A stretch of DNA of 64,000 nt, taken from positions 1-64,000 of the forward strand of contig JAFSJK010000010.1 of the NCBI GenBank assembly GCA_017439305.1. Reading direction: 5' to 3'. Under the pieces are notes generated by a model that was not told the origin of the DNA, did no database searches, and worked only from the letters and a program-made list of their open reading frames with translations. Shown here piece by piece: positions 21,658-51,883 of this stretch; position 1 is the stretch's first letter; every line of letters begins with the position of its first letter. Position numbers and translations under genes: made by a program. This DNA is from Bacteroidales bacterium. GTDB taxonomy: Bacteria > Bacteroidota > Bacteroidia > Bacteroidales > UBA932.

Positions 21658-21658
21658 T

Positions 21659-23146: not shown

Positions 23147-25164
23147 AGTTCGTTCAAGGTTTTGCGGATAAGGGTTTCGTCGGCGAAGTTCGGGAGGGTG
23201 ACCTTCAGTTCGGGGGTGCGGGCCATTTCGCGCTCAATGGCGAAGCGGGCGCCGTCGTTCCGGGCCCAGCTGCGGCGGGCGATGCCGTTGTTCACGTCCC
23301 AGAACAGCATTTCGCGGATGTGGCGGGCGCTGTCTTCGGAACCGTCGATGACCATGCCGAAGCCGCCGTTGATGACTTCGCCCCAGCCGACACCGCCTCC
23401 GTTGTGGATGGATACCCACGTGGCGCCGCGGAATCCGTCGCCGATGACGTTCTGGACGGCCATGTCAGCGGTGAACTGGGATCCGTCGTAGATGTTGGAA
23501 GTCTCCCGGAACGGGGAATCCGTGCCGGATACGTCGTGGTGGTCGCGTCCCAGCACGATGGGCGCCGTGATTTCGCCTTTCCGGATGGCTTCGTTGAAGG
23601 CGAGGGCGATCTTGGTGCGGCCTTCGCAGTCGGCATAGAGGATGCGGGCCTGGGAACCCACCACCAGGTGGTTGCGGCCGGCTTCCTCGATCCAGTGGAT
23701 GTTGTCACGCATCTGGCCGGCAATCTCTTCGGGGGCGGTGGCGGCGATTTCGCCGAGGACTTTCACCGCGAGGGCGTCGGACTTGGCGAGGTCTTCCGGT
23801 TTCTCGCTCATGCACACCCAGCGGAACGGACCGAAGCCGTAGTCGAAATAGAGCGGGCCCATGATGTCCTGCACATAGGACGGATACCGGAATGAACCGT
23901 CGGCCTTGAGGACGTCGGCTCCGGCGCGGGAACTTTCCAGCAGGAATGCATTTCCATAGTCGAAAAAGTACATCCCCTTGTCAGCGAGGCGGTTGACGGC
24001 AGCGACGTGGCGGCGGAGCGAGGCTTTCACGGCCTCCTTGAAACGCTCCGGTTCCTCGGCCATCATCTTTTTCGATTCCTCGAGGCTGTAGCCGGCCGGG
24101 TAGTAGCCGCCCGCCCAGGGATTGTGGAGGGAAGTCTGGTCGGAGCCGAGGTCCACGTGGACATCCTCGTCCGCGAGACGCTCCCACAGGTCCACGATAT
24201 TGCCTACGTAAGCGAGCGATACGACCTCCTTCGCAGCGACGGCCTTGCGGATGCGCGGGATGAGCTCGTCGAGGTCCGTGTGGAGTTCGTCGACCCAGCC
24301 TTGCACGTAACGCTTTTCCGCGGCCTTCGGGTTGATTTCGGCGGTGACACTGACGACACCGGCGATGTTGCCCGCCTTCGGCTGGGCGCCGGACATGCCG
24401 CCGAGGCCGGCGGTCACGAAGAGCAGACCGCCGCGGTCGTCGCCATTCAAGCCCTTGGCCTTCAGTTGCTTCCGGGCGGCGTTCATCACCGTGATGGTGG
24501 TGCCGTGGACGATGCCCTGCGGACCGATATACATATAGGATCCGGCCGTCATCTGGCCGTACTGGCTTACACCCAAGGCGTTGAACTTCTCCCAATGGTC
24601 CGGCTTCGAGTAGTTCGGGATGACCATGCCGTTGGTGACGATCACGCGCGGAGCATCCTTATGGCTCGGGAACAGTCCCAGCGGATGGCCGGAGTACATC
24701 ACGAGCGTCTGTTCATCCGTCATCGTGGCGAGGTACTGCATCACCAGGCGGTACTGGGCCCAGTTCTGGAAGATGGCGCCATTGCCGCCGTAAATGATCA
24801 GTTCGTGCGGATGCTGGGCCACGCGGGGGTCCAGGTTGTTCTGGATCATGGCCATGATGGCCGCCGCCTGCCGGGATTTCGCCGGATATTCGTCGATGGG
24901 CCGGGCATACATCTCGTACGACGGGCGGAAGCGGTACATATAGATGCGTCCGTATCTGTGGAGTTCCTCGGCGAACTCTTTCGCCAGCACTTCATGATGC
25001 TTCGCCGGGAAATAGCGCAGCGCATTCTTCAGTGCCAGCACCTTCTCTTCCGGGGAGAGGATATCCTTCCGTTTGGGAGCGTGGTTGATCTCCGGGTCAT
25101 AGGCTTTCACCTCCGGCAATGCTGCCGGAATCCCCGCGAGAATCTCTTCTTGGAATCTGTTCAT
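23143..25164 (-). CDS. hutU: urocanate hydratase
   Basis: The 673-residue NAD+-dependent enzyme converts urocanate to imidazolonepropionate. The family stretches YGGNGAIFQNWAQY, GLGGMSGAQPKAGNIAG (NAD-binding region) and WVSIHNGGGVGWGEVINGGFGMVIDG are present. At over 670 residues it is of the longer type found in Bacteroidota rather than the ~555-residue proteobacterial form. I chose the ATG at 25164, four bases after the ftcD stop; a TTG at 25179 would overlap ftcD. Confidence 0.94.
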   Translation of the reverse strand: MNRFQEEILAGIPAALPEVKAYDPEINHAPKRKDILSPEEKVLALKNALRYFPAKHHEVLAKEFAEELHRYGRIYMYRFRPSYEMYARPIDEYPAKSRQAAAIMAMIQNNLDPRVAQHPHELIIYGGNGAIFQNWAQYRLVMQYLATMTDEQTLVMYSGHPLGLFPSHKDAPRVIVTNGMVIPNYSKPDHWEKFNALGVSQYGQMTAGSYMYIGPQGIVHGTTITVMNAARKQLKAKGLNGDDRGGLLFVTAGLGGMSGAQPKAGNIAGVVSVTAEINPKAAEKRYVQGWVDELHTDLDELIPRIRKAVAAKEVVSLAYVGNIVDLWERLADEDVHVDLGSDQTSLHNPWAGGYYPAGYSLEESKKMMAEEPERFKEAVKASLRRHVAAVNRLADKGMYFFDYGNAFLLESSRAGADVLKADGSFRYPSYVQDIMGPLYFDYGFGPFRWVCMSEKPEDLAKSDALAVKVLGEIAATAPEEIAGQMRDNIHWIEEAGRNHLVVGSQARILYADCEGRTKIALAFNEAIRKGEITAPIVLGRDHHDVSGTDSPFRETSNIYDGSQFTADMAVQNVIGDGFRGATWVSIHNGGGVGWGEVINGGFGMVIDGSEDSARHIREMLFWDVNNGIARRSWARNDGARFAIEREMARTPELKVTLPNFADETLIRKTLNEL

Positions 25165-25168
25165 AGTT

Positions 25169-26875
25169 CTAGTTGTCAATGTGGTCGTTCACGGCTTTCA
25201 GCACCTGGTCCTGCAGGGCAAGGGCTTCGGAGATGATGGCGTCGGCGCGTTTGAGGAGCGGCTCGGCGGGGGCCTTGTCGGTGAGGCCGGCGGCGTTGAT
25301 GCGGACGTTGAGGGCGGCGCCGCGGATGCCGGCGACGGCTGCGAGGGCGGCGACACCGGCGTCGGAGGCCGATGCCGGGTTGCCTTTCTGCGCCATCTCC
25401 AGCGCCAGCGGGAGAGCCTTCAGGGAAGCTTCCATCGTGCGGAGCGGGACAGAGGCGGCGTAAAGGGTTGCCTCTTCCAGCGCAGCGGCCCGGGCGGCCT
25501 TCTCTTCGGCCGTACCCTTTGGCATCGAAAATACGTCCATGATGCGGTTGAAAGCGGCCGTGTCTTCATCGACCAGGGCGAGGAGTTCCGCCATCAGGGC
25601 CTGGCCCTTTTCGGCGACGTCGGAGAACTCTTTCCAGCGGTCGTCCCAACCGCGCTTGTGGGCGGAAAGGTTCGCGACCATCGTGGCGAGAGCGGCTCCG
25701 AGGGCGCCCATGTAGGCGGAGATGGAACCGCCTCCCGGGGCGGCGGATTCGGAAGCGGTCTCGGCCGCAAAGCCCTTGACGGACATTCTTATAAGGCGCT
25801 CTTTGACAGCCAGTTCCGCCTCATCCTCCATCAGGTATTCAATGACTTTCTCCTTCGGGTTGAAGGGCTTGAGGTCGTCCAGTGACATGGACTTGACGGC
25901 GATCTTGATGATTTCCTCCTCGGAAATGCCCATGGACCGCTGCTGCTTTTCCAGATAGAACTTGCCCGCGTCGATGAGCACCCGCTTCGGGACGAGACCT
26001 ACGATTTCCACGCCCGTGACCTTGAGTCCGCGGGCGGCCGCGGCGCGGCACACTTCCTCGTAGGCGACGTGGAGCGGAACCGCGTCGATGTCGGTGATGT
26101 TCATGGATACCTGGGCGATGCCGTATTCATCGATGTACCAGCCGATGGCCTTGCAGCCTTTCAGGGTACCGGGAATCCAGAGCTGGTTGCCATTCTCGTC
26201 CTTCAGGAGCTTGCCGGTAAGGGAACCTCCCTCGCGGGCCTTGCGGCCTTTCTCGCGCACGTCGAAGGCGACGGCCATCGCCCGGCGGGTGGAAGTGGTG
26301 TTCAGGTTATAGTTGACAGCGATCAGGAAGTTCCGGGCGCCCACGTTCGTGGCGCCGGCCTTTGCAGCGACGTCGTCGTATTCTCCGCCGAAATCGGGCT
26401 TCCGGGCGGGATCGGCCATTTTTTCGGGCAGGGCTTCGTATTCTCCGGCCCGGCACACGGCCAGGTTCCGCCGTTCCGGCGTGAAGGCGGCCGCTTCGTA
26501 GCAGTAGCAGGGGATGCCGAGTTCCTTATAGAGACGCTCCGCCAGCCCGCGGGCCAGCGTGGCGCATTCTTCCAGCGTAATTCCGGAGACCGGAATGAGC
26601 GGGAGCACGTCGGTGGCACCGCTGCGCGGATGGGCGCCGTGATGCTGGCGCATGTCAATCAGTTCCTGCGCCTTGGCGGCTCCTTGGAAAGCGGCCTCCA
26701 GCACCGGCTCCGGTTCGCCCACGAAAGTTACTACCGTCCGGTTTGTCGCCTCGCCGGGATCGACGTCCAGTACTTTGACGCCCTCGACGGAAGAGATGGC
26801 CGCTACGATCTGGTCGATGACCGCACGGTCGCGTCCTTCGCTGTAGTTGGGGACGCATTCGATGATTCTTTTCAT
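25169..26875 (-). CDS. ftcD: bifunctional glutamate formimidoyltransferase / formimidoyltetrahydrofolate cyclodeaminase
   Basis: The 568-residue fusion finishes histidine breakdown. Residues 1 to ~330 are the formimidoyltransferase (MKRIIECVPNYSEGRD, HHGAHPRSGATDVLPLIP), moving the formimidoyl group of N-formimidoyl-glutamate to tetrahydrofolate and releasing glutamate. Residues ~360-568 are the cyclodeaminase (APGGGSISAYMGALGAALATMVA), making methenyl-tetrahydrofolate and ammonia. The same fusion occurs in animals and Bacteroidota. As the first gene of the operon it follows a clear promoter at 26901. Confidence 0.95.
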   Translation of the reverse strand: MKRIIECVPNYSEGRDRAVIDQIVAAISSVEGVKVLDVDPGEATNRTVVTFVGEPEPVLEAAFQGAAKAQELIDMRQHHGAHPRSGATDVLPLIPVSGITLEECATLARGLAERLYKELGIPCYCYEAAAFTPERRNLAVCRAGEYEALPEKMADPARKPDFGGEYDDVAAKAGATNVGARNFLIAVNYNLNTTSTRRAMAVAFDVREKGRKAREGGSLTGKLLKDENGNQLWIPGTLKGCKAIGWYIDEYGIAQVSMNITDIDAVPLHVAYEEVCRAAAARGLKVTGVEIVGLVPKRVLIDAGKFYLEKQQRSMGISEEEIIKIAVKSMSLDDLKPFNPKEKVIEYLMEDEAELAVKERLIRMSVKGFAAETASESAAPGGGSISAYMGALGAALATMVANLSAHKRGWDDRWKEFSDVAEKGQALMAELLALVDEDTAAFNRIMDVFSMPKGTAEEKAARAAALEEATLYAASVPLRTMEASLKALPLALEMAQKGNPASASDAGVAALAAVAGIRGAALNVRINAAGLTDKAPAEPLLKRADAIISEALALQDQVLKAVNDHIDN

Positions 26876-41349: not shown

Positions 41350-41422
41350 GACTCGTTAGCTCAGTTGGTAGAGCACAACACTTTTAATGTTGGGGTCTCG
41401 GGTTCGAGCCCCGAACGGGTCA
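41350..41422 (+). tRNA. tRNA-Lys (anticodon UUU)
   Basis: The acceptor stem GACTCGT pairs with ACGGGTC (one G-U pair), the D arm is GCTCAGTTGGTAGAGC, and the anticodon stem CAACA/TGTTG closes the loop CTTTTAA, giving TTT. The T arm is TCGGG-TTCGAGC-CCCGA. CCA is not encoded after the discriminator base. Confidence 0.95.
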
Positions 41423-41453
41423 CAAAGGAAGCGGGTCTTCCAGAGCATTACCA

Positions 41454-41526
<73 letters not shown>

Positions 41527-41530
41527 CTTG

Positions 41531-41616: not shown

Positions 41617-42150
41617 ATGAATCTCAGTGACATCCTCCTGCAGCAGGTGACCAAGAGCGTTGCCGGCAGCAACATCCAGATCCCCCAGAACCTCCAGCAG
41701 CAGGTCCTCGGCGGACTGTCCGATTCCATCCTTGGCAGCCTCGCCAAGACGGCGACCGCCCCGGGCGGCCTCGACCAGATCAAGGGTCTCCTCACCGGCC
41801 AGGCCGATGCGGCCAAGAGCCCGATTACGGCCCTCGCTGGCAATATCTTCAACTCTAACGTCCTTTCCAAGCTCAAGCTCGGCGCTGCCGGCGCTGCGCT
41901 CCTCGCTTTCATCCCCAAGATCATGGGCGGGCTCAAGGGCATCATCAAGGACCAGGACGGTGACGGCGACGTGGACCTGAACGACGTCCTCATCACCCTC
42001 AAGGGCGGCAGTGGCAACATCCTCGGTTCCATCCTGGGCGGTGCACTCGCAGGAGGAGCCAGCGCCCAGCCCAAGGCCAGTACCGGTGGCAGCGTGCTCG
42101 GCAGCATTGCCGGCAGCGTGCTTGGCGGCATCTTCGGCAAGAAGAAATAA
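41617..42150 (+). CDS. small Gly/Ala-rich protein with an EF-hand/dockerin-like calcium loop
   Basis: The 177-residue protein starts MNLSDILLQQVTKSVAGSN. No signal peptide is visible. The middle has a hydrophobic helix (LGAAGAALLAFIPKIMGGLK, about 88-107), then KDQDGDGDVDLNDVLITLK (about 111-129), which matches the calcium loop of EF-hands and dockerins (acidic residues at loop positions 1, 3, 5, 9 and 12). The C-terminus repeats GSILGGALAGGA and GSVLGSIAGSVLGGIFGKKK, glycine-zipper-like. The N-terminal third recalls DUF937-type proteins. I do not recognise a function. Own promoter and own terminator. Confidence 0.8.
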   Translation: MNLSDILLQQVTKSVAGSNIQIPQNLQQQVLGGLSDSILGSLAKTATAPGGLDQIKGLLTGQADAAKSPITALAGNIFNSNVLSKLKLGAAGAALLAFIPKIMGGLKGIIKDQDGDGDVDLNDVLITLKGGSGNILGSILGGALAGGASAQPKASTGGSVLGSIAGSVLGGIFGKKK

Positions 42151-42200: not shown

Positions 42201-42243
42201 GTCTCCGGACTCCCTGAGGATTGCAAATGTGGCGGGGATTCCG

Positions 42244-42251
42244 TATTTTTG
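42244..42251 (+). promoter_or_regulatory. -7 promoter element of the glycolipid-like operon
   Basis: TATTTTTG lies immediately before the first ATGs (42253 and 42259) of the transporter gene. It would give an mRNA with almost no leader. No other promoter is obvious until 51888, so all nine genes to 51883 could be one transcript. Confidence 0.6.
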
Positions 42252-42252
42252 T

Positions 42253-42612
42253 ATGATTATGTGGAAACTTGTCATCCTTGCCGTCACCCAAAGCGCTTTC
42301 CTCTGCGGAGGACAGGTGCTGCTGAAACTGGGGCTTGCCGCCTCAGGGCCGTTCAGTTGGTCCTGGGCTTTTTTCAGGAGCCAGCTCACGAACTGGTGGT
42401 TCCTCTTCTGCGGCCTCTCTTTCGGGGTTGCGACGGTTCTTTGGCTGTATATCCTGAAGCATTTTCCCTTCAGCATCGCCTATCCGCTTTCCTGCCTGAG
42501 CTATGCGTTCGGGATGGTGGCTGCCATCCTCGTGTTCCATGAGCAGGTGAACTGGGTCCAGTGGCTTGGCGTGTTTCTTGTCATGACAGGTTGTGTTTTG
42601 ATTGCGAGATGA
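42253..42612 (+). CDS. small four-helix EamA/SMR-like membrane protein
   Basis: A 119-residue protein (ATG 42253; 42259 is possible) with four predicted helices: about 4-24, 44-62, 68-90 and 98-118. GGQVLLKLGL near the start and YPLSCLSYAFGMVAAILVFHEQVNWVQWLGVFLVMTGCVLI at the end are like small multidrug-resistance and ArnE-type lipid-sugar flippase subunits. Members work as dimers. As the first gene of the cluster, it may flip a lipid-linked sugar across the inner membrane. Its stop overlaps the LolA-like start. Confidence 0.8.
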   Translation: MIMWKLVILAVTQSAFLCGGQVLLKLGLAASGPFSWSWAFFRSQLTNWWFLFCGLSFGVATVLWLYILKHFPFSIAYPLSCLSYAFGMVAAILVFHEQVNWVQWLGVFLVMTGCVLIAR

Positions 42613-43130
42613 GAAGACTGATCCTATTCATAGCCGCCATGGTGTTGTCCCTGTCCGCATCGGCCCAGCCGGAAATCCTGGACCGGTTGAAGGAGGCCAA
42701 TGCCTATGAGACCCTGCAGCTCTCCTTCGTCCAGACCCGGCACAGCGCGATGCTTGCGGACAATCTGGTGAGTGAAGGCCGGTTGTATCTGGCCTCGCCG
42801 GACCGCGTGCGCTGGGAGGTGATGAAACCATTCCACAGCGTGTTCGTATCGCAGGGGGAGCTGGCTATCCGCGGCCGCCGCTTCCGGATGCCCTCGGAGA
42901 AGGATTTTTCCGCCACGGTGTTGGAAGGGGAGGACTATTCCATCAAACTGATTCCCCTTCGCAGGGACCTTAAATCGCTTTTCCGGGAAATCGTTATCCA
43001 CGCAGACAAGCGCTCGTTGCAGATTCGTTCCGCCGTGCTTGTCAATCCGGACGGCGACTGGACCCTGCTGGAATTCAAGGATATCCTGACGGACCGGCCG
43101 GTGGATCCCAAACTCTTTGAAGAAGAATAA
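42609..43130 (+). CDS. LolA-like periplasmic lipid/lipoprotein carrier
   Basis: The 173-residue secreted protein has a Sec signal (MRRLILFIAAMVLSLSASAQ). The rest has the LolA pattern: ANAYETLQLSFVQTRHSAML, GRLYLASPDRVRWEVMKPFHSVFV and a half-barrel of strands. Besides lipoproteins, LolA relatives in aryl-polyene and flexirubin clusters are thought to carry the lipid product to the outer membrane. The ATG overlaps the previous stop (ATGA). Confidence 0.86.
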   Translation: MRRLILFIAAMVLSLSASAQPEILDRLKEANAYETLQLSFVQTRHSAMLADNLVSEGRLYLASPDRVRWEVMKPFHSVFVSQGELAIRGRRFRMPSEKDFSATVLEGEDYSIKLIPLRRDLKSLFREIVIHADKRSLQIRSAVLVNPDGDWTLLEFKDILTDRPVDPKLFEEE

Positions 43131-43131
43131 G

Positions 43132-43467
43132 ATGCTGCAGGGGATCCTCTATGAAACCATATCTTCCGATGCGGCTGGCGCCACGGTCCGCCTGCTGCCG
43201 GACAGTCCTGTGTACCAAGGGCATTTCCCGGGGTATCCCATCACGCCGGGCGTTTGCCTGGTGGATATCGCCCTGGAACTGATTTCCGAAAGAGCGGGCC
43301 GTCCCGTCCGCCTGGCCGCTGCGAAGAATATCAAGTTCACGAGTCCGGTCATTCCGTCCGGGGAGACGCAGCTCCGCTTCAATCTCTCCGGAGAAGGAAC
43401 CGTCCGGACCGTCGAAGTCCTGTCCGGAGAGACCCTCTGTGCCAAGATGACCCTGACCGTGGAATGA
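43132..43467 (+). CDS. hotdog-fold 3-hydroxyacyl dehydratase-like protein (FabZ/ApeI type)
   Basis: The 111-residue hotdog protein has the active-site stretch YQGHFPGYPITPGVCLVDIALELI (about 25-48): the His of HFPGYP is present and the second acidic residue is an Asp in LVDIA where FabZ has Glu. KNIKFTSPVIPSGETQLRF follows. FabA/FabZ-type enzymes dehydrate 3-hydroxyacyl-ACP, but similar small proteins in aryl-polyene clusters act as dehydratases or thioesterases. No ACP gene is near. The ATG is one base after the LolA stop; a TTG at 43117 is less likely. Confidence 0.83.
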   Translation: MLQGILYETISSDAAGATVRLLPDSPVYQGHFPGYPITPGVCLVDIALELISERAGRPVRLAAAKNIKFTSPVIPSGETQLRFNLSGEGTVRTVEVLSGETLCAKMTLTVE

Positions 43468-44174
43468 CGGATCCCCGTCATATCTGCGCCGTGATTCCGA
43501 CGTTCAACAACGGCGGAACGGTGGCGGGTGTCGTGAGGGGTGTCCTTCACCAGGGGATCCCGGTCATTGTCGTGGACGACGGCAGTACGGACTGTACTGC
43601 GGATGCTTTGAAAGAACTGGATATCAAGGTGATAACGCATCCTGGAAACCGGGGAAAGGGACGTGCGCTCAAAACGGGACTGGAGGAAGCCAGACGCCAG
43701 GGATACCGATTCGCCCTGACCCTCGATGCGGACGGCCAGCACGATCCCGTCGATATTCCTGCCCTGGTGGCCGCCGCCGGGGAAAGGACCCTGGTCGTCG
43801 GCAGCCGCAACCTGACGGCCGACGGGATGCCTTCCGGCAACACCTTCGCCAACCGTTTCTCGAACTTCTGGTTTACGGTCCAGACGGGCCGGAAACTGCC
43901 GGATACGCAGACGGGTTTCCGGATCTATCCCCTGGACGATATCCCGTCCCTGAAACTCCTGACGGCCCGCTATGAGGCCGAACTGACCCTGCTGGTCTTC
44001 TCCGCCTGGAAGAATCTCCGGATCGTCCCCGTTCCGGTCCGGGTGTACTATCCCGAAGACCGGGTCTCCCATTTCCGGCCCTTTGCCGATTTCTTCCGGA
44101 TCAGCGTGCTGAACACCGTCCTTTGCGTCCTTGCCCTGGTCTATGGCTATCCCCGTATGCTCCTGGGCCGATGA
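43464..44174 (+). CDS. GT2-family glycosyltransferase
   Basis: The 236-residue cytoplasmic enzyme has the GT-A fold with AVIPTFNNGGTVAGVV (about 8-23), VVDDGSTD, NRGKGRALKTGL and the metal-binding DADGQHDP (about 91-98), then TGFRIYPL and YEAELTLL. It resembles dolichyl-phosphate or DPM1-like transferases that act on lipid acceptors. It shares an ATGA overlap with the hotdog gene and with the exporter gene that follows. The longer frame opening at 43254 lies inside the hotdog gene and is not coding. Confidence 0.9.
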   Translation: MTDPRHICAVIPTFNNGGTVAGVVRGVLHQGIPVIVVDDGSTDCTADALKELDIKVITHPGNRGKGRALKTGLEEARRQGYRFALTLDADGQHDPVDIPALVAAAGERTLVVGSRNLTADGMPSGNTFANRFSNFWFTVQTGRKLPDTQTGFRIYPLDDIPSLKLLTARYEAELTLLVFSAWKNLRIVPVPVRVYYPEDRVSHFRPFADFFRISVLNTVLCVLALVYGYPRMLLGR

Positions 44175-47100
44175 AGCGTCTTGTCCTTCATATCTACGAC
44201 TGGCTGTCGGCGCACAAAGGGCTGGCCGTCTTCATCATGGCCGTTCTCCTGGGACTCTGCGCCCTGTCCGCCTTGCGGATGGACTATGAGGAGGACATCA
44301 CGGCATTCCTCCCGCAGAGCGGGGAGAGCCGGCGCTATTCCGACGTCTATAACCGGCTCGGCCAGGACCGGATGGCCGTTTTCTTCGAAATGGAAGAAGC
44401 GGATCCGGACCGGATGATGGAGGCGATGACCGCTTTCGGGAATCATTGGGCGGAGGCCGATACGGCTTCGCTGGTCCCGGACCTCGAAGTGTCGGCCAGT
44501 GCGGGCGCTGTCCAGGAGGTGTTCGGTTTCATCCGCTCCAACTGGCCCTATTTCCTGACGGAGGCCGATTATGTCCGGATGGATTCCCTGCTGGCCGTGC
44601 CCGGATTCCTGGAAGGGAAGATGGAGGAGAACCGGCGCAGTTTCTATTCCATGGCGTCGGGCTTTACCTCCCAGTATATGCGCAGCGATCCGCTTGGCCT
44701 GTTTTCTCCGGTCCTGCAACGCCTGGAGGCACTGAACCCCGCCACGCGCAGCCGGGTGGAGGACGGTTTCCTGTTCACGAGTGACGGACGTACCGGAGTG
44801 GTCCTGTTCAATTCTCCTTTCGGCGGCAGTGAGTCAGGACGGAATGCCAAACTGGTAGCCTTGACGGACACGGTCAAGGCGCGGACGGCTGCGGAGTTTC
44901 CGGAAATCCATCTTTACTCGACGGGCGGTCCGGAAGTGGCTGTGGAGAATGCCGCCCGCATCAAGAAGGACTCCTTCCTGGCCCTTGCCCTGGCGGCCAT
45001 TCTGATCTGTATCGTCCTCTGGCTGAGCTATAAACGCTTTGCCGACGTGTTCTGGATCCTGGTGTCCATCCTCTCCGGTGCCTTGTTTGCGCTGGGAATC
45101 ATCGCCCTGTTCAAGAGTTCCGTCTCCCTGATCGTCCTGGGGATCGGTTCCATGATCATCGGCATCGCCGTGAACTATCCGCTCCATTATGTGGATCATC
45201 TCAAGTATCAGCCGGACAAGCGCAAGGCCCTTGCTGACCAGGTGAATCCGCTCCTGGTGGGCAACATCACCACGGTCGGTGCCTTCCTGTCGCTGCTCCT
45301 GCTGAAGGCCGATGCCCTGCACGATTTCGGATTCATCGGTGCGATGATGCTGGTAGGAACGATCTTGTTCGTCCTGGTGTTCCTACCTGTCTTCGTGCCG
45401 GCGGCCACCCGGCCCCGGAATACGGTCAAGCTGGACTTCGACCGCCATTTTCACCTGTCCCCGAAGGCCCGCAAATGGGTTTTCATCGGATTCCTCCTCC
45501 TGACGGCCGTCCTGGGCTGGCTCAGCCGGGACATCGCTTTCGATGCCGACATGCATCACATCAATTACATGACGGAGGAACAGTCGAAGGGCTTTTCCGT
45601 CCTGGAGGAGATGGGGGCATCCGCAGACGGGAAGTCTACGGTGTACGCGGTCGCTTCCGGTGCTACGGCGGAAGAAGCGCTGCAGCGCAATGAGGCGCTG
45701 GTTCCTCTGCTTGGAAAAGAATGCTCCGGGCTGGGTACCTTCCTTCCTTCCAAGAAGGAGCAGGCGGTGCGGATTGCCCGTTGGAACGCCTTCCTGGAGG
45801 CCCACCCCGACCTGTCCGACGGCCTGATCGATGCGGGTTTGAAGTCGGGTTTCACAGCCCATGCTTTCCAGCCGTTCTTCGATCTGACGGATACGGAATG
45901 GGCGGTGCAGGAGGTGGATTATTTCGCTCCGTTGACGGAGACGCTGGGTGCGGCGATGTATCTCCCGGGAGAGGATGACGTACAGTTGGTCAATTATTTG
46001 AAAACGGAAGACCTGGAAGGGACGAAAGCCGCCCTGCGGACGGTGCTTCCGGACGGAACTTTCTGCTTCTCGACAGACGACGTGTCCGGAACGCTGGTCC
46101 GGCTGCTGTCGGAGGATTTCGACCGGATCGGCCTGCTGTGCAGCCTCATCGTCTTTTTCTTCCTGTGGCTCTCTTTCGGCCGCATCGAACTGAGCCTCGC
46201 GTCTTTCCTCCCCCTGGCCGTGGGCTGGGTCTGGATCCTCGGGACCATGCGCCTTTTCGGCCTGCAGTTCAACATTGTCAATATTATCCTGGCAACCTTC
46301 ATCTTCGGCCAGGGTGACGACTATACCATTTTCATCACGGAGGGTCTGATGTACGAATATGCCACGGGCAGGAAGATCCTGCGTTCGTTCAAGAATGCGG
46401 TGGTCCTGTCTGCCCTCATCATGTTCATCGGCATCGGCGCGCTCATCGTCGCGAAACACCCGGCCCTGCGGTCGCTGGCCGCCGTTACCGTCGTGGGCAT
46501 GTTCACCGTGGTCGTGATGGCCTATTACCTTCCGCCGCTGGTATTCCGTTTCCTCACGCGGAAGAAGGGGCAACCCCGGAAGGTCGCCTGGACGCTGGGC
46601 CGCTCCCTCCGGACAGGTTATATCTTCCTCGTTTTCCTGCTGGCCATGCTGGGACTGACTGTCTGGACCTTCTTCCTGTTCCTGGGCGGCCCGGCTCCCC
46701 GCAAGCGCGAACGCTATCGGAATGCCCTGATGAAGACGGCGAGGCTGGCCTTGAAGGCCATTCCGGGCTGCCCGTATACCTTGTCGAACCCGCATGGGGA
46801 AGATTTCTCGAAACCGGCGGTGTATATCTGCAACCATCAGTCCCATTTCGATGTCCTGCCCATCCTGGCCCTCCATCCCAAGGTAATCCTCCTCACGAAC
46901 GAATGGGTCTGGAACAGCCCGTTCTACGGCTATCTGATCCGGAAAGCGGAGTTCTACCCGGTGATGGAGGGACTGGAGAAGAACCTCGCCCATATGAAGG
47001 ACCTCGTGGCGCGGGGCTATTCCATCGTCATTTTCCCGGAGGGAACACGCAGCCAGGACTGCCGGATCCAACGTTTCCACCGAGGCGCTTTCGTCTCCGC

Positions 47101-47611
47101 CCGGGAACTGGGATTGCCCGTTCTGCCGCTCTATATCCACGGTTTCGGCTACGCCCTGCCGAAGCATGACTTTCTTCTGCGGAAGGCCGGGCTGTACATG
47201 GAAGTGGGCGAGCGGTTCGAGGTCCCGGAAGGCGACATCGCCGCGTTCACGCGGAAGGTCCGCCACGACTATGAGAGGGTGTACGCGCGCATCCGCCGAG
47301 AACGCGAAACGGCGGCGTACAACGCCACTTATGTCCGCTACCAGTACCTGTACAAAGGGCATGATGCCGATGCGGAATGCCGTCGGGTCCTGACCCCGGA
47401 AACCCTCGCCCGGGTCGATGCCCTGACTGGTGATTCGCTCGTCATTAGGGAATCCGGCTGCGGAGTATATGCCCTCCTGGTGGCTTTGACGCACCCCGAG
47501 ATGCACGTGACGGCCTATGAGGAAGACGAAGAAAAGTATCTGACGGCCGTCCGCTGTGCGGGCGTTCCGGAGAATTTGACGTATATTTGCGGGAGATGCG
47601 AAGAAGCCTGA
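44171..47611 (+). CDS. MMPL/RND-type exporter fused to a PlsC acyltransferase and a degenerate methyltransferase-like tail
   Basis: A 1146-residue fusion. Residues 1-820 form an MMPL exporter: a first helix (15-35), a large periplasmic loop, five helices (about 275-415), a second loop and another helix bundle (about 655-790) with GQGDDYTIFI, the acidic proton-relay region. Residues about 860-1050 are a PlsC acyltransferase with NHQSHFDVLP (H-X4-D, about 886) and FPEGTRS. The last ~80 residues (GDSLVIRESGCGVYALLVALTHPEMHV) resemble the first Rossmann unit of a methyltransferase without a GxGxG loop. It would acylate a lipid and export it, between a GT2 and an esterase. Confidence 0.9.
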   Translation: MKRLVLHIYDWLSAHKGLAVFIMAVLLGLCALSALRMDYEEDITAFLPQSGESRRYSDVYNRLGQDRMAVFFEMEEADPDRMMEAMTAFGNHWAEADTASLVPDLEVSASAGAVQEVFGFIRSNWPYFLTEADYVRMDSLLAVPGFLEGKMEENRRSFYSMASGFTSQYMRSDPLGLFSPVLQRLEALNPATRSRVEDGFLFTSDGRTGVVLFNSPFGGSESGRNAKLVALTDTVKARTAAEFPEIHLYSTGGPEVAVENAARIKKDSFLALALAAILICIVLWLSYKRFADVFWILVSILSGALFALGIIALFKSSVSLIVLGIGSMIIGIAVNYPLHYVDHLKYQPDKRKALADQVNPLLVGNITTVGAFLSLLLLKADALHDFGFIGAMMLVGTILFVLVFLPVFVPAATRPRNTVKLDFDRHFHLSPKARKWVFIGFLLLTAVLGWLSRDIAFDADMHHINYMTEEQSKGFSVLEEMGASADGKSTVYAVASGATAEEALQRNEALVPLLGKECSGLGTFLPSKKEQAVRIARWNAFLEAHPDLSDGLIDAGLKSGFTAHAFQPFFDLTDTEWAVQEVDYFAPLTETLGAAMYLPGEDDVQLVNYLKTEDLEGTKAALRTVLPDGTFCFSTDDVSGTLVRLLSEDFDRIGLLCSLIVFFFLWLSFGRIELSLASFLPLAVGWVWILGTMRLFGLQFNIVNIILATFIFGQGDDYTIFITEGLMYEYATGRKILRSFKNAVVLSALIMFIGIGALIVAKHPALRSLAAVTVVGMFTVVVMAYYLPPLVFRFLTRKKGQPRKVAWTLGRSLRTGYIFLVFLLAMLGLTVWTFFLFLGGPAPRKRERYRNALMKTARLALKAIPGCPYTLSNPHGEDFSKPAVYICNHQSHFDVLPILALHPKVILLTNEWVWNSPFYGYLIRKAEFYPVMEGLEKNLAHMKDLVARGYSIVIFPEGTRSQDCRIQRFHRGAFVSARELGLPVLPLYIHGFGYALPKHDFLLRKAGLYMEVGERFEVPEGDIAAFTRKVRHDYERVYARIRRERETAAYNATYVRYQYLYKGHDADAECRRVLTPETLARVDALTGDSLVIRESGCGVYALLVALTHPEMHVTAYEEDEEKYLTAVRCAGVPENLTYICGRCEEA

Positions 47612-48456
47612 TTCTTTTTTTTCTCGTGCTTTGCACAGCCCTGCAGGCCCAGACCGTGAGGCTCTGGGAGGGTACGCCCGTGCATGCCGGGTCCACCTTG
47701 ACCGCCTACCTGCCGCAAGGAGAGCCGAAAGCCGCCGTGGTCGTATGCCCCGGTGGCAGCTATTTCTGGCTGGACAAGGAAGGAGAAGGCGAACGGGTGG
47801 GCGAGTGGCTCGCCTCCGAGGGCTTTGCCGCCTATGTGCTCCTGTACCGCACGGGAGGCTGGTTCAACTTCACGTTCCACACCCGGGCCGTGTTCGGCGG
47901 GAACCGCCATCCGGCCATGATCGAGGACCTGCAGCGGGCCATTTTCCTGGTCCGGCAGCAGTTCGACGGTCCCGTGGGCGCAATGGGCTTCTCCGCGGGC
48001 GGACATCTGGTGATGTCGGCGGCGGAGTTTTTCGGGACGGATTTCACGGGCCAGGCAGCGGAAACGTCCCTGCGTCCGGATTTCGTGGCGCCCATCTATC
48101 CGGTCGTGTCCATGCGCGATGCCTGCACCCATGCCCGTTCCCGGCGAGGTTTGCTGGGGGATGGCAGGACAGGGAACCAAGTACTGCGGGATTCCCTCTC
48201 GCTGGAGTGCCACGTGCGGACCGATACGCCGCCCGTGTTTCTGCTTCGCTGCGATGACGATCCGGTAGTGGATCCGCAGAATGCGGACCTGCTGGACGCG
48301 GCATTGACGGAAAAAGGCGTACCGCACCGCACAATCCGCTACCACGTCGGAGGACACGGATTCGGTGCTGATAAAGAGAAGTTTACGGAGGAAACGGCCC
48401 GTTGGCAGGCCGAGTTCCTCGATTGGATAGAAGAGATTGACTATGGCAGACATTGA
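47596..48456 (+). CDS. secreted alpha/beta hydrolase (acetyl-esterase-like)
   Basis: The 286-residue protein has a Sec signal (MRRSLILFFLVLCTALQAQ). VVVCPGGSYFWL forms the oxyanion-hole region, GFSAGGH (about 138-144) is the nucleophile elbow, and the Asp/His pair is probably in RCDDDPVVD and VGGHGFG. It resembles BD-FAE/acetyl-xylan-esterase-like enzymes. It overlaps the 3' end of the exporter gene by 16 bases and the ligase start by 14, so it belongs to the same operon and may trim acyl groups from the exported product. Confidence 0.87.
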   Translation: MRRSLILFFLVLCTALQAQTVRLWEGTPVHAGSTLTAYLPQGEPKAAVVVCPGGSYFWLDKEGEGERVGEWLASEGFAAYVLLYRTGGWFNFTFHTRAVFGGNRHPAMIEDLQRAIFLVRQQFDGPVGAMGFSAGGHLVMSAAEFFGTDFTGQAAETSLRPDFVAPIYPVVSMRDACTHARSRRGLLGDGRTGNQVLRDSLSLECHVRTDTPPVFLLRCDDDPVVDPQNADLLDAALTEKGVPHRTIRYHVGGHGFGADKEKFTEETARWQAEFLDWIEEIDYGRH

Positions 48457-49741
48457 ATTTGAAAGGCCCGAAGTCATCAAGGCCTATCAGGAAGGACGCC
48501 TTGCGGAGGCCCTGCAATACCTGGCGGAGCATTCGAAGTATTATCAGCGGATGTTCGCCAGTTATCACATCGACCTGTCGAAGATCAGGACCCTGGAGGA
48601 TCTCGTGAAGATTCCTTTCACGGAGAAGAAGGATCTCCAGTTGTTCAACGATGAGTTCCTCTGCTGCCCGAGGGAGAGGATCGTGGATTACGTGACCACC
48701 TCCGGCACCTTGGGGGAGCCGGTTACTTTCGGATGTACCGACAAGGACCTGGACCGGCTGGCTTTCAACGAGAAGAAGTCCTTCGCCTGTGCCGGCGTGA
48801 AGCCGGGCGACATCGTCCAGCTGATGACCACCATCGACAAACGCTTCATGGCGGGATTGGCCTATTTCCTGGGAATCAGGTCGTTAGGTGCCAGTATCAT
48901 CCGCGTGGGCAACGGTATTCCGGAACTTCAGTGGGATACCATCCAGCGCCTGAAACCGGATACCATCATGTGCGTCCCGTCCTTCATCCTGCGCCTCATC
49001 CAGTATGCGGAGGAGCATGGCATCGACTACAGGAACTCCTCGGTGCGGCGGATCATCGGCATCGGGGAAGGACTCCGTGACCAGCATTTTGACCTGAACC
49101 TCCTGGGCCGCCGGATCAAGGAGAAATGGGACGTGGAGCTGTTCGCGACCTATTCATCCACCGAGATGGGCGCAACCTTCTCCGAATGCCCTTACGGCTG
49201 CGGCGGACACGTCCATCCGGAGCTGATTATCGTGGAGATCATCGGTGAGGATGACTTGCCGGTAGCCGATGGGGAAGTGGGGGAGATCGTGGTTACGACC
49301 CTGGGCGTGGAAGGCATGCCGCTCCTGCGCTTCCGGACAGGCGACATGGCGGCCAAGGTGACGGAGCAGTGCAAGTGCGGCCGCTGGTCGTACCGCCTGA
49401 CTCCGCTCGTCGGACGCAAGAACAACATGATCAAGCTCAAGGGGACGACCCTGTACCCGCCGGCCATCAACGATGTGCTGGACAATACCGACTATGTGGA
49501 GAATTACGTAGTCGTCGTGGACGAAAGCGATGCCGGGACCGACGATGTCCTGGTGAAGCTGGGACTCAAGTACCAGCCTGATTTCGACCCGGTGAAGGAT
49601 CTGAAGGACCGTTTCCGTTCCCGGATCCGCGTGGCCCCGCGCGTGGAGATCCTGCCCGTCCCGGAGGTTGCTGCGGTCAATTATCCCGCGAAGTCCCGCA
49701 AGCCCGTGAAATTCATCGACAACCGTCCCAAGCATGTTTGA
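48443..49741 (+). CDS. adenylate-forming ligase of the phenylacetate-CoA ligase (PaaK) family
   Basis: The 432-residue enzyme has the PaaK pattern: LAEHSKYYQRMFASYHIDLSKI, the P-loop-like TTSGTLGEPV (about 86-95), YSSTEMG (about 234-240), FRTGDMAAK (Asp of the A8 region) and GRKNNMIKLKGTTLYP. Cys residues in CPYGCGGH and CKCG may bind a metal, as in relatives. It activates a carboxylic acid with ATP, probably to a CoA or ACP thioester. Overlaps on both sides tie it to the cluster. Confidence 0.88.
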   Translation: MADIEFERPEVIKAYQEGRLAEALQYLAEHSKYYQRMFASYHIDLSKIRTLEDLVKIPFTEKKDLQLFNDEFLCCPRERIVDYVTTSGTLGEPVTFGCTDKDLDRLAFNEKKSFACAGVKPGDIVQLMTTIDKRFMAGLAYFLGIRSLGASIIRVGNGIPELQWDTIQRLKPDTIMCVPSFILRLIQYAEEHGIDYRNSSVRRIIGIGEGLRDQHFDLNLLGRRIKEKWDVELFATYSSTEMGATFSECPYGCGGHVHPELIIVEIIGEDDLPVADGEVGEIVVTTLGVEGMPLLRFRTGDMAAKVTEQCKCGRWSYRLTPLVGRKNNMIKLKGTTLYPPAINDVLDNTDYVENYVVVVDESDAGTDDVLVKLGLKYQPDFDPVKDLKDRFRSRIRVAPRVEILPVPEVAAVNYPAKSRKPVKFIDNRPKHV

Positions 49742-50804
49742 CGATATCCGTCCCTATACAGACGCGGAGATTCCGGCCGCGATGCAGCGTATCGTCACCT
49801 ATCCCGAATTCCGGGCGGTGAGCGGTTATCTTTTCCCGGAAAAGCCTTTTGAGCGGGTTGCGGAGACGGTGGTTTCCTGCCGGACCATCGACGAATTCCA
49901 GGACCGGTTCATGGTACCCGTGGTGGAATCCATCATGGCGCTGTCCACGGACGGCGTGACGGTGGAGGGAATGGAGAAGCTGGACCCGGACCGGCGGTAC
50001 CTGTTTGTCGCCAACCACCGGGACATCACCCTGGATGCCACGTTCTTCCAGGTCCTGCTGCGCCGGGCCGGTCTTCGTACGACGGAGATCACCTTCGGCG
50101 CCAACCTGATGCAGGGTGGATTGGTCGTGGATTTCGGCAAGTCCAACAAGATGTTCCGGGTGGAACGGCCCACGACGGTGTCTTCACCCCGGGCCTTCCT
50201 GACGAGTTCCGTCCGTCTGTCGGAGTACATTCGGTGGACCATCCTGGAGAAACGGGAATCTGTTTGGATTGCCCAGCGCAATGGACGGACGAAGGACGGG
50301 GTGGACGCTACGGACCAGGGCATTATCAAGATGTTCTCGCTGGCCGGAGACATCCTGGACCTTTCTATCGTCCCGCTGGCCGTTTCCTATGAATGGGAAC
50401 CCTGCGATGTGCTCAAGGCCGCTGAACTTACGGCCCTGGAGCGCGACAGGTATTATGAAAAGAAGCCCGGAGAGGACTTGAAGAGCATCCTCACCGGCAT
50501 CACCCAGCCCAAAGGACGGGTCCATTACACGGTTTGCGATCCCGTCACCGCGAAGGACCTCGCACCCTGGCAGGACCTTCCCGTCAATACGTTCTGCCGC
50601 GAAACGGCCGCCCTCATTGACCGGCGCATCCGGGCAGGGTACCGGATCTGGCCGAACAACCGCATCGCCGCGGACTACATGGAAGGCACTTCGTCCGGCG
50701 GTTATACGCCGCGGGAGAAGGCTGCCTTCGAAGCCCACCTTTCCTCCATTCCGGAGGAACTCCGCCCTGTTGTCCGGAAGATTTATGCTGGCCCCCTGTT
50801 ATGA
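49734..50804 (+). CDS. acyltransferase of the PlsC/LPLAT type
   Basis: The 356-residue protein lacks a signal peptide. VANHRDITLDATFF (about 95-108) is the acyltransferase active-site block; the His and the second Asp are separated by five residues, unlike the usual H-X4-D, so either the nearer Asp acts or the spacing is a family variant. WIAQRNGRTKDGVDATDQG supplies the second block (normally FPEGTR). It overlaps the ligase by 8 bases and the SGNH gene by 4. It would place an acyl chain on a glycerol, amino acid or sugar head group. Confidence 0.84.
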   Translation: MFDDIRPYTDAEIPAAMQRIVTYPEFRAVSGYLFPEKPFERVAETVVSCRTIDEFQDRFMVPVVESIMALSTDGVTVEGMEKLDPDRRYLFVANHRDITLDATFFQVLLRRAGLRTTEITFGANLMQGGLVVDFGKSNKMFRVERPTTVSSPRAFLTSSVRLSEYIRWTILEKRESVWIAQRNGRTKDGVDATDQGIIKMFSLAGDILDLSIVPLAVSYEWEPCDVLKAAELTALERDRYYEKKPGEDLKSILTGITQPKGRVHYTVCDPVTAKDLAPWQDLPVNTFCRETAALIDRRIRAGYRIWPNNRIAADYMEGTSSGGYTPREKAAFEAHLSSIPEELRPVVRKIYAGPLL

Positions 50805-51883
50805 GAAAGACATTGACACTCCTTCTCCTGGCCTTCCTGAGCCAGGCCCTGTCCGCCCAAGTGTTCACGGACGCGTCTGTTTTTCCAGTATACGGAAAGG
50901 CTTCCGATGCTACGAAAACCCCTTATCAGCGGCTGCCGGCCGACCTTGAGGGGGTATCGCGTGGTGCCGTCTGGTATCTCGGCACCCAGAGCGCCGGCCT
51001 GTATATCCGTTTCCGGTCCAATTCCACGGCCATACACGCCCGTTGGACTTCGAGCTACGGCAGCTGGCTTTCCAATATGAACCCGACCGGTGTCCGCGGG
51101 CTGGACCTTTATGTCCTTGTGGACGGCCAGTGGAGACATGCGGGTGTGGGCTTGCCTTCACAAGAGAAGACAACCACCCATTGCCTGGTCAGGAACATGA
51201 CGCCGGAGGAGCGGGAATATATGCTGTATCTGTCTCTGTATGACGGGATCGATCAGTTGGAAATCGGAGTGGACGAAGGCGCTTCCCTGGCTCCGTCACA
51301 GGTTGATTCGCCCCGTCGCGGCCGTCCGGTGGTGATGTACGGTACCAGTATCCTGCAGGGATGCAGCGCGAGCCGTCCCGGGATGGCCCATACGAACATC
51401 ATTTCCCGCGCCCTGGACCGCGAAGTCATCAACCTGGGCTTCAGCGGAAATGCCCTGCTGGACCTGGAAATCGCCCGTCTGATGGCCTCCGTGCCCGATC
51501 CGGCGGTGTATGTGCTGGATTATGCACCCAACGCCTATGCCCCGATGATCAAGGAGCATGGCGAGGAGTTTTTCCGGATCCTTCGCGATGCGCATCCGGA
51601 TGTCCCGGTCATTTTCATCGAAGACGTGATCTTTCCGCATACGCACTTTGACAGTGCCATCCGGAAGGAAGTGGAGGAAAAGAATTTCGAGCAGAAAGCC
51701 CTCTTCGGGCGGTTGAAGAAACAAGGTGAGAAAGGGATTTACTACATCCCTGCCGCCTCCATGACCGAACCCGACGGGGAAACTACGGCCGATACCATCC
51801 ATCTGACGGACCTCGGCATGCAGCGCTATGTGGACCTCGTCCTCCCGGTCATCCGGAAAGCCTTGCGCAAAGCGCACAAATAA
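50801..51883 (+). CDS. secreted SGNH/GDSL-type hydrolase
   Basis: The 360-residue protein has a Sec signal (MRKTLTLLLLAFLSQALSAQ), an N-terminal jelly-roll of ~150 residues (LYIRFRSNSTAIHARWTSSYGSW; GVRGLDLYVLVDG) and an SGNH domain with nucleophile Ser in YGTSILQGCSASR, Asn in GFSGNALLD and DTIHLTDLGMQR at the end (Asp and His). Such two-domain esterases remove acyl groups from glycans. It shares an ATGA overlap with the acyltransferase and ends the nine-gene run. Confidence 0.88.
   Translation: MRKTLTLLLLAFLSQALSAQVFTDASVFPVYGKASDATKTPYQRLPADLEGVSRGAVWYLGTQSAGLYIRFRSNSTAIHARWTSSYGSWLSNMNPTGVRGLDLYVLVDGQWRHAGVGLPSQEKTTTHCLVRNMTPEEREYMLYLSLYDGIDQLEIGVDEGASLAPSQVDSPRRGRPVVMYGTSILQGCSASRPGMAHTNIISRALDREVINLGFSGNALLDLEIARLMASVPDPAVYVLDYAPNAYAPMIKEHGEEFFRILRDAHPDVPVIFIEDVIFPHTHFDSAIRKEVEEKNFEQKALFGRLKKQGEKGIYYIPAASMTEPDGETTADTIHLTDLGMQRYVDLVLPVIRKALRKAHK

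What the first reader, a model, noticed from the sequence alone, without database searches (positions are those of the whole stretch)
42253..51883. Nine-gene overlapping cluster resembling the export and tailoring half of an aryl-polyene or flexirubin cluster, without ketosynthase or carrier protein
Seen: nine same-strand genes with overlaps or gaps of at most one base encode a small flippase-like protein, LolA-like carrier, hotdog dehydratase, GT2, MMPL exporter fused to PlsC, alpha/beta hydrolase, PaaK-like ligase, second acyltransferase and SGNH esterase. Known: LolA-like, hotdog, glycosyltransferase, acyltransferase and MMPL genes sit together in aryl-polyene (ape) clusters. Inference: the cluster builds an acylated, glycosylated lipid and delivers it to the outer membrane, taking its acyl chains from outside the locus. 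It may be a distinct glycolipid system.
Basis: partly seen in the sequence, partly recalled or inferred. Interest (0 to 1): 0.75.

Follow-up and report, generated by a model that had tools for sequence, protein, structure and literature searches.

The report
Export half of split pigment cluster
These genes are the export-and-attachment half of a known type of bacterial membrane pigment (aryl polyene) cluster whose pigment-building half sits elsewhere in the same genome, after a rearrangement cut one ancestral cluster in two in a small group of related, probably rumen, bacteria.

Summary
The nine same-strand genes are real. They are not a separate glycolipid system. The ligase is FlxY (686.6 bits, cut-off 520), the family that in Chitinophaga activates 4-coumarate for flexirubin. 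The same genome holds the missing half on another contig: four proteins with ketosynthase domains, two ACPs, dehydratase, reductase FlxB, methyltransferase FlxJ and an acyltransferase. In relatives the halves are joined at exactly the junction broken here (K1|W1): seen in 32 of 55 other FlxY-bearing genomes of the genus. E. coli ApeJ is one protein whose two domains match one gene in each half. The split is inherited: six genomes share it and form one FlxY clade (99/98). In four pairwise tests both halves are under purifying selection. All six carry a Bacteroidota-type promoter motif just upstream of the orphaned export operon. The ninth gene (SGNH esterase) is not core. The genome lacks a flexirubin-type tyrosine ammonia-lyase and DarB, so I file this as an aryl-polyene lipid pathway, not flexirubin; the starter acid's source is unknown. 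Unlinked polyene loci are already known in Azoarcus. New variant of a known kind, modest interest. Product untested.

The parts
42221..42251 (+). Bacteroidota-type promoter motif TTG-N20-TAnnTTTG, 7 bases upstream of the likely W1 start
   Evidence: 7 matches in the window, 0.09 expected; same motif 6-7 nt upstream of W1 in 6 of 6 split-clade genomes. That this is the Bacteroidota promoter consensus is recalled, not from a call
42259..42612 (+). W1, small EamA/ArnE-F-like membrane protein (possible lipid-linked sugar flippase)
   Evidence: EamA 39.1 bits, cut-off 28.2. ArnE 46.4 bits, below its cut-off of 92
42609..43130 (+). W2, LolA-like periplasmic carrier (ApeL counterpart)
   Evidence: LolA 48.3 bits over cut-off. 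LolA2_flexi 76 bits, below cut-off 125; family profile matches E. coli ApeL E=6e-19
43132..43467 (+). W3, hotdog dehydratase (ApeI counterpart)
   Evidence: FabA over cut-off, ApeI-like 26.1 vs 28.5 (below). ApeI 5e-8. ApeI 1e-14
43464..44174 (+). W4, GT2 glycosyltransferase (N-terminal half of ApeJ)
   Evidence: PF00535; matches ApeJ residues 6-233 of 558, E=8e-50
44171..47611 (+). W5, MMPL exporter fused to PlsC-type acyltransferase (ApeM + ApeD counterparts) plus a conserved C-terminal tail of about 100 aa without a Pfam match over cut-off
47596..48456 (+). W6, alpha/beta hydrolase (BD-FAE, AxeA1/PaeX-like)
   Evidence: PF20434 45.4 bits, cut-off 26.8. Present in many intact clusters
48443..49741 (+). 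W7, FlxY aryl-acid CoA ligase
   Evidence: NF053551 686.6 bits, cut-off 520
49734..50804 (+). W8, second PlsC-like acyltransferase
   Evidence: PF01553 31.7 bits, cut-off 23. Present in many intact clusters
50801..51883 (+). W9, GxDLY/GDSL esterase; overlaps W8 by 4 bases but is not a core member
   Evidence: PF14606, PF14607; next to W8 only in G000, G121, G180, G263; not there in G345, G331 or in the other clusters mapped
41350..41527 (+). tRNA-Lys(TTT) and tRNA-Lys(CTT), at the site where the export operon now sits
   Evidence: same pair beside the GMP gene in 4 of 7 genus members looked at that lack the operon there
41617..42150 (+). Small conserved protein (177 aa) between tRNA-Lys and W1, no Pfam match; not part of the cluster

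Best explanation
The locus is the export-and-attachment module of an aryl-polyene (APE) lipid pathway of the Bacteroidota FlxY type. The synthesis module lies on contig C88 of the same genome. An ancestral operon FlxJ-ACP-AT-DH-KS-..-ACP-KS-K1 | W1-...-W8 was cut between K1 and W1 in the ancestor of a six-genome clade. The export half landed beside a tRNA-Lys pair and has its own promoter motif; both halves have since been kept. Working model, in order. FlxY (W7) activates an aryl-acrylic acid. The C88 ketosynthases, reductase and dehydratase, with W3, extend it on the two ACPs to a polyene. FlxJ methylates the ring. The C88 acyltransferase with W4, W5-PlsC and W8 builds it onto a (possibly glycosylated) lipid. 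W1 may flip a lipid-linked sugar. The W5 MMPL domain and LolA-like W2 carry the product to the outer membrane. Shown here: gene content, homology, the split, its sharing by one clade, purifying selection. Inferred: every biochemical step in this organism, the promoter, and the product.
For: KS search of own genome: five matching places, four on C88 in one locus and one on C78. C88 gene set with FlxJ and FlxB over NCBIfam cut-offs. One continuous order through K1-W1 to W8 in G103, G113, G091; K1 within 3 kb of W1-W4 in 32 of 55 other FlxY-positive genus genomes; the other 23 are the 5 further split-clade genomes plus 18 in which the junction was not seen. In the family sample, of 47 FlxY genomes the K6 dehydratase lies 5.8-16.6 kb away on the same contig in 23, on one contig but far in 2, on another contig in 18, no hit in 4 (counted). 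Fusion link: W4 matches ApeJ 6-233 and K7 matches ApeJ 249-550. Same split in 6 of 6 closest genomes: KS side beside M16 and lysA/aspartokinase in 6 of 6; export side beside GMP in 5 of 6 because the G331 contig begins at W1. One clade 99/98. dN/dS 0.03-0.25 for every gene comparable between this genome and four of the others. Promoter motif in 6 of 6. FlxY activates 4-coumarate in vitro in C. pinensis (PMC3992019). In Azoarcus two unlinked polyene loci are both essential (PMC3949708).
Against: No chemistry. The FlxA tyrosine ammonia-lyase is missing (best match is HutH), so the starter source is unknown and the pathway could be altered. No LolB-like ApeN or thioesterase ApeK counterpart was matched among the mapped proteins. 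The two halves are on different contigs of a draft metagenome genome, so their true distance is unknown. In 18 of 55 other genomes the junction could not be judged or was absent from the stretch fetched. The rearrangement mechanism is inferred.
Confidence: 0.9

Rival explanations
1. A stand-alone glycolipid system that borrows acyl chains from primary metabolism.
For: No KS/ACP at the locus; own promoter motif; GT2, flippase-like protein and acyltransferases are present.
Against: The ligase is FlxY; the KS/ACP half is in the genome and joined to these genes in relatives; both halves kept in all six split genomes.
Confidence: 0.04
2. The split is an assembly or binning artefact.
For: Draft genome: 90 contigs, 92.6% complete, 3.2% contamination.
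Against: Five further genomes show the same split with the same neighbours (G331 only on the KS side and the HSDR side; in G345 HSDR/CCA are inverted), most of them well inside contigs; the halves have near-equal GC, 0.598 and 0.583.
Confidence: 0.02
3. A decaying, non-functional pathway left after loss of the ammonia-lyase.
For: FlxA absent in all six split genomes; loss of a starter enzyme could end synthesis.
Against: Stop-free aligned frames and dN/dS 0.03-0.25 for both halves at synonymous distances of 0.37-1.71. FlxA is also absent from 13 of 28 high-quality FlxY-positive genus genomes (counted), several with intact clusters.
Confidence: 0.06
4. The product is a true flexirubin (polyene esterified to a dialkylresorcinol).
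For: FlxY, FlxJ and FlxB are flexirubin-named families, all over cut-off.
Against: DarB model best 29.7 bits against a cut-off of 550; no FlxA. DarA was not searched.
Confidence: 0.03

Closest known systems
Flexirubin flx cluster of Chitinophaga pinensis / Flavobacterium johnsoniae (PMC3992019; parts 1-2 of 5 read)
   Same: FlxY ligase, FlxJ- and FlxB-family genes (by NCBIfam name), several KS, LolA, GT, exporter and acyltransferase genes; in C. pinensis the dar genes are in a separate cluster
   Different: No FlxA lyase and no DarB here; the polyene cluster itself is cut into synthesis and export halves
E. coli CFT073 aryl-polyene cluster apeA-R (PMC8253772; outline and sections 5-7 read; DNA)
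   Same: Counterparts of ApeB, C, D, E, F, I, J, L, M, O, P, Q, R found by profile
   Different: One 15.5 kb cluster in E. coli; ligase FlxY here, whose profile did not match ApeH; ApeJ is one protein there but two genes in two loci here; the ApeD counterpart is fused to the exporter here; W1 matched no Ape protein
Arcuflavin/xanthomonadin-like arc loci of Azoarcus sp. BH72 (PMC3949708; passages and section 18 read)
   Same: Polyene genes in two unlinked loci, both essential for the pigment
   Different: Different phylum; hydroxybenzoate-type starter proposed; genes sorted differently (GT with the KS genes, ligase with exporter and an ACP); DAR present

Membership tests
Aryl-polyene (APE) pathway | KS, KS partner/chain-length factor and a third KS | tested here: met
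   K2, K5, K11 match ApeO/ApeR; K1 matches ApeC E=2e-14; all on C88
Aryl-polyene (APE) pathway | Two dedicated ACPs | tested here: met
   K3~ApeE 7e-30, K8~ApeF 2e-24
Aryl-polyene (APE) pathway | Ring methyltransferase, ketoreductase, dehydratases | tested here: met
   K9~ApeB 4e-135, K13~ApeQ 6e-80, W3~ApeI 1e-14, K6~ApeP 9e-9
Aryl-polyene (APE) pathway | LolA, MMPL exporter, GT2 and acyltransferases | tested here: met
   W2~ApeL, W5~ApeM and ApeD, W4 and K7~two halves of ApeJ
Aryl-polyene (APE) pathway | LolB-like ApeN and thioesterase ApeK | tested here: inconclusive
   None of the 22 family profiles matched ApeN or ApeK at E<=1; the rest of the genome was not searched for them
Aryl-polyene (APE) pathway | Aryl-acid activating ligase | tested here: met
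   FlxY over cut-off; its profile did not match ApeH
Aryl-polyene (APE) pathway | Genes in one cluster | tested here: not met
   Split in this genome and five relatives; joined in other relatives. Not taken as essential: Azoarcus is split too
Aryl-polyene (APE) pathway | Aryl-polyene product in the outer membrane | not testable with these tools
   needs chemistry
Flexirubin | FlxY, FlxJ, FlxB | tested here: met
   686.6/520, 597.6/560, 387.5/340 bits
Flexirubin | FlxA tyrosine ammonia-lyase | tested here: not met
   Only aromatic lyase found in the genome is hutH in a hut operon; FlxA model 338 against cut-off 700
Flexirubin | DarB of dialkylresorcinol synthesis | tested here: not met
   DarB best 29.7 bits against 550
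Flexirubin | DarA of dialkylresorcinol synthesis | not tested
   no search made

The most novel reading that the evidence does not exclude
In species that have lost the ammonia-lyase (24 of 56 FlxY-positive genus genomes have no over-cut-off FlxA, one of these with a contig-end fragment), the pigment is built on an aromatic acid taken from outside, such as p-coumarate released from plant cell walls in the rumen. The envelope lipid would then depend on the host's feed, with synthesis and export switched by separate promoters. The cluster's own BD-FAE esterase (W6) could help free the acid, though W6 also occurs in clusters that have the lyase.
Probability: 0.2. Interest if true: 0.5.

Novelty: new variant of a known kind. 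Interest (0 to 1): 0.3.

Why it matters
Cluster finders that require a ketosynthase at the locus would miss or misname this half. It is a natural experiment in which a polyketide pathway was cut into synthesis and export modules and both were retained in one clade, and it flags gut Bacteroidales that keep a flexirubin-type ligase without the enzyme that makes its usual substrate.

Tried and rejected
Idea that the esterase W6 replaces the lyase: rejected as a simple swap because W6 and a lyase hit occur together in L085/G091, L095/G113 and L145/G134. It survives only as a weak part of the novel case.

Idea that the window aromatic lyase is the missing FlxA: rejected, it is hutH between hutI and hutU/ftcD.

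Idea of a second export or synthesis set in the genome: own-genome FlxY-like extras score 105-226 bits, below the cut-off, and KS hits are C88 plus one on C78.

Idea of DAR: DarB search negative.

Megablast of the locus in E. coli genomes: no match. Literature: searches listed no paper whose title or abstract start describes a synthesis/export split of a polyene cluster in Bacteroidales; I saw listings and abstract starts, in an open-licence library only. In PMC8241843 the find call returned 0 occurrences of 'aryl polyene' in the text although the search listing counted 3.

Structure prediction was not used.
Full report
Observation. Nine same-strand genes, each overlapping or one base from the next, are present. 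The main addition is that the PaaK-like ligase scores 686.6 bits against the FlxY model (cut-off 520), the flexirubin 4-coumarate ligase family. In Chitinophaga pinensis purified FlxY made 4-coumaroyl-CoA, with 121-fold higher catalytic activity on 4-coumarate than on cinnamate (PMC3992019, parts 1-2 of 5 read).

The missing half is in the genome. A ketosynthase search of the window's own assembly (2.99 Mb, 90 contigs) found five matching places: four on contig C88 at 130.8-141.0 kb and one on C78. The C88 locus (L006 10690-17677 minus, L007 1251-4283 plus) encodes: K1, a short KS-domain protein; K2, a KS; K3, an ACP; K4, 180 aa; K5, a KS; K6, a dehydratase; K7, an LpxL-type acyltransferase; K8, an ACP; K9, the methyltransferase FlxJ (597.6 bits, cut-off 560); K10, a hydrolase; and, divergent, K11, a KS; K12, a CrtD-like flavoprotein; K13, the reductase FlxB (387.5 bits, cut-off 340). 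K4 matched no Pfam or NCBIfam model.

The halves belong together. In three family members (G103, G113, G091) one continuous run goes through the KS/ACP genes to K1 and straight on into W1-W8, with K11-K13 at one end (for G091 the stretch shown begins at K5). In the genus, of 55 other genomes with FlxY, K1 lies within 3 kb of W1-W4 in 32. The other 23 are the 5 further split-clade genomes and 18 in which the junction was not seen, often because contigs or fetched stretches end. In eight intact clusters the tblastn matches of K1 and W1 abut, overlap or are 5-64 bases apart. In a wider family sample, FlxY is over cut-off in 47 of 119 genomes. In those 47 the K6 dehydratase lies on the same contig 5.8-16.6 kb away in 23, on the same contig but about 110 kb and 1.3 Mb away in 2, on another contig in 18 (mostly drafts of many contigs), and gave no hit in 4 (counted). 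FlxJ is over cut-off in 22 of 119 and at E<=0.001 in 36, fewer than FlxY, so the methyltransferase looks optional.

Link to a known pathway. Profiles built from the cluster families (3-81 sequences each, gathered by my script) were run against the 18 E. coli CFT073 Ape proteins (DNA). Matches: W2-ApeL, W3-ApeI, W4-ApeJ residues 6-233, K7-ApeJ residues 249-550, W5-ApeM and ApeD, K1-ApeC, K2/K5/K11-ApeO/ApeR, K3-ApeE, K8-ApeF, K9-ApeB (4e-135), K13-ApeQ, K6-ApeP. So a single E. coli protein, ApeJ, has its two domains divided between the two loci here. W1, W6, W7, W8, W9, K4, K10 and K12 matched no Ape protein; ApeA, G, H, K and N were matched by none.

The split is inherited and both parts are kept. 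The five genomes nearest in FlxY (93-94%: G345, G263, G180, G331, G121) all have the same division: the KS half beside an M16 peptidase gene, with aspartokinase-lysA between it and K11-K13; the export half between the GMP pyrophosphorylase gene and HSDR/CCA (for G331 the export contig starts at W1, so its GMP side is open, and in G345 HSDR/CCA are inverted). These six are one clade in a 60-row FlxY tree (99/98; bootstrap not fully settled). Pairwise dN/dS between this genome and four of them (G331 not included) is 0.03-0.25 for every gene that could be compared, without stops in the aligned parts (coverage 0.89-1.00). K10 was found only in this genome, G345 and G331 within the clade. W9 is beside W8 only in G000, G121, G180 and G263; its homologues are common in the genus (32 of 41) but not in the other clusters mapped, so it is secondary.

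The new junction. In all six genomes the motif TTG-N20-TAnnTTTG stands 6-7 bases before a W1 start codon. In the window it occurs 7 times against 0.09 expected. That this is the Bacteroidota promoter consensus is recalled. Upstream lie tRNA-Lys(TTT), tRNA-Lys(CTT) and a small conserved gene. Of seven genus members without the export operon at the GMP gene, four (G137, G155, G123, G156) have the tRNA-Lys pair there and the M16 peptidase gene within the same 20 kb stretch; three (G134, G144, G157) have neither. Since M16 adjoins K1 in the split clade, one rearrangement between the two sites would explain both new junctions. This is an inference; the M16 gene's other neighbours there (TonB receptor, adenylate kinase genes of C88) were not found beside it in those four.

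Splitting recurs. G196 and G230 carry K1-W4 and W5-W8 in separate places, each break at least 2.9 kb from a contig end. The lyase gene is on another contig from FlxY in, for example, G155, G316, G123, G236, G329, G196 and G311.

What it is not. The FlxA lyase model finds 32 of 250 genus genomes over cut-off (806-858 bits), all 32 among the 56 with FlxY; all other scores listed are at most 377. None of the six split genomes has it; the window's own lyase is hutH. 13 of 28 high-quality FlxY-positive genomes lack it. DarB is absent. So the pathway is filed as aryl-polyene of the FlxY type, not flexirubin. Starter source unknown.

Precedent and novelty. In Azoarcus two unlinked polyene loci are both essential for the pigment (PMC3949708, passages and section 18), so an unlinked pathway is known. 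What is added is a clean synthesis/export cut in a defined clade with intact outgroups. The closest named genome is a metagenome assembly (uncultured Bacteroidales RUG253, 94% FlxY); it is probably G263, since the contig lengths agree (103970). Many of the 80 record titles name rumen or other ruminant gut samples; cultured Segatella and Hoylesella are also listed. That the RUG series is from rumen is recalled. The genus name was not established.

Noticed in passing
L006 17707-19901 and L007 1-1174: An aspartokinase-lysA pair sits between the two arms of the KS half in all six split-clade genomes, so lysine synthesis genes are embedded in the pigment locus.
   Followed up: partly
L150/L151 (G196), L295/L254 (G230): Separate cut of the same cluster between W4 (GT2) and W5 (exporter).
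   Followed up: partly
window 47290-47611: C-terminal tail of the exporter-acyltransferase protein, conserved across relatives, no Pfam match over cut-off; by eye it resembles part of a SAM-binding fold.
   Followed up: partly
L006 12649-13191: K4, 180 aa, 38 sequences gathered from cluster loci, no Pfam or NCBIfam match; by eye it may be a short ketosynthase-like protein.
   Followed up: partly
L095, L085 (G113, G091, another genus): FlxY 85% identical to this genome's, close to the 87-89% of the nearest non-split genus members, while same-genus G041 and G058 are 56-57%: possible transfer of the cluster between genera.
   Followed up: no
genus genomes such as G214, G220, G304: K5-like ketosynthases with open frames near 600 aa in genomes without a FlxY hit: possibly another type II system.
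   Followed up: no
window 8538-42251 (7 places): TTG-N20-TAnnTTTG motif occurs 7 times against 0.09 expected.
   Followed up: no
window 20440-26875: A hut operon (hutI, hutH, hutU, ftcD/fchA).
   Followed up: yes
L249 (G203), L259 (G251): The HSDR/CCA/XerC neighbourhood lies within 20 kb of FlxY in two more distant genus members.
   Followed up: no
L104 (G041 C49) and L077/L130 (G041 C33): Same-genus G041 has K1 well inside one contig and W3-W7 on another, 2.1 kb from its end: possibly another split, not settled.
   Followed up: no
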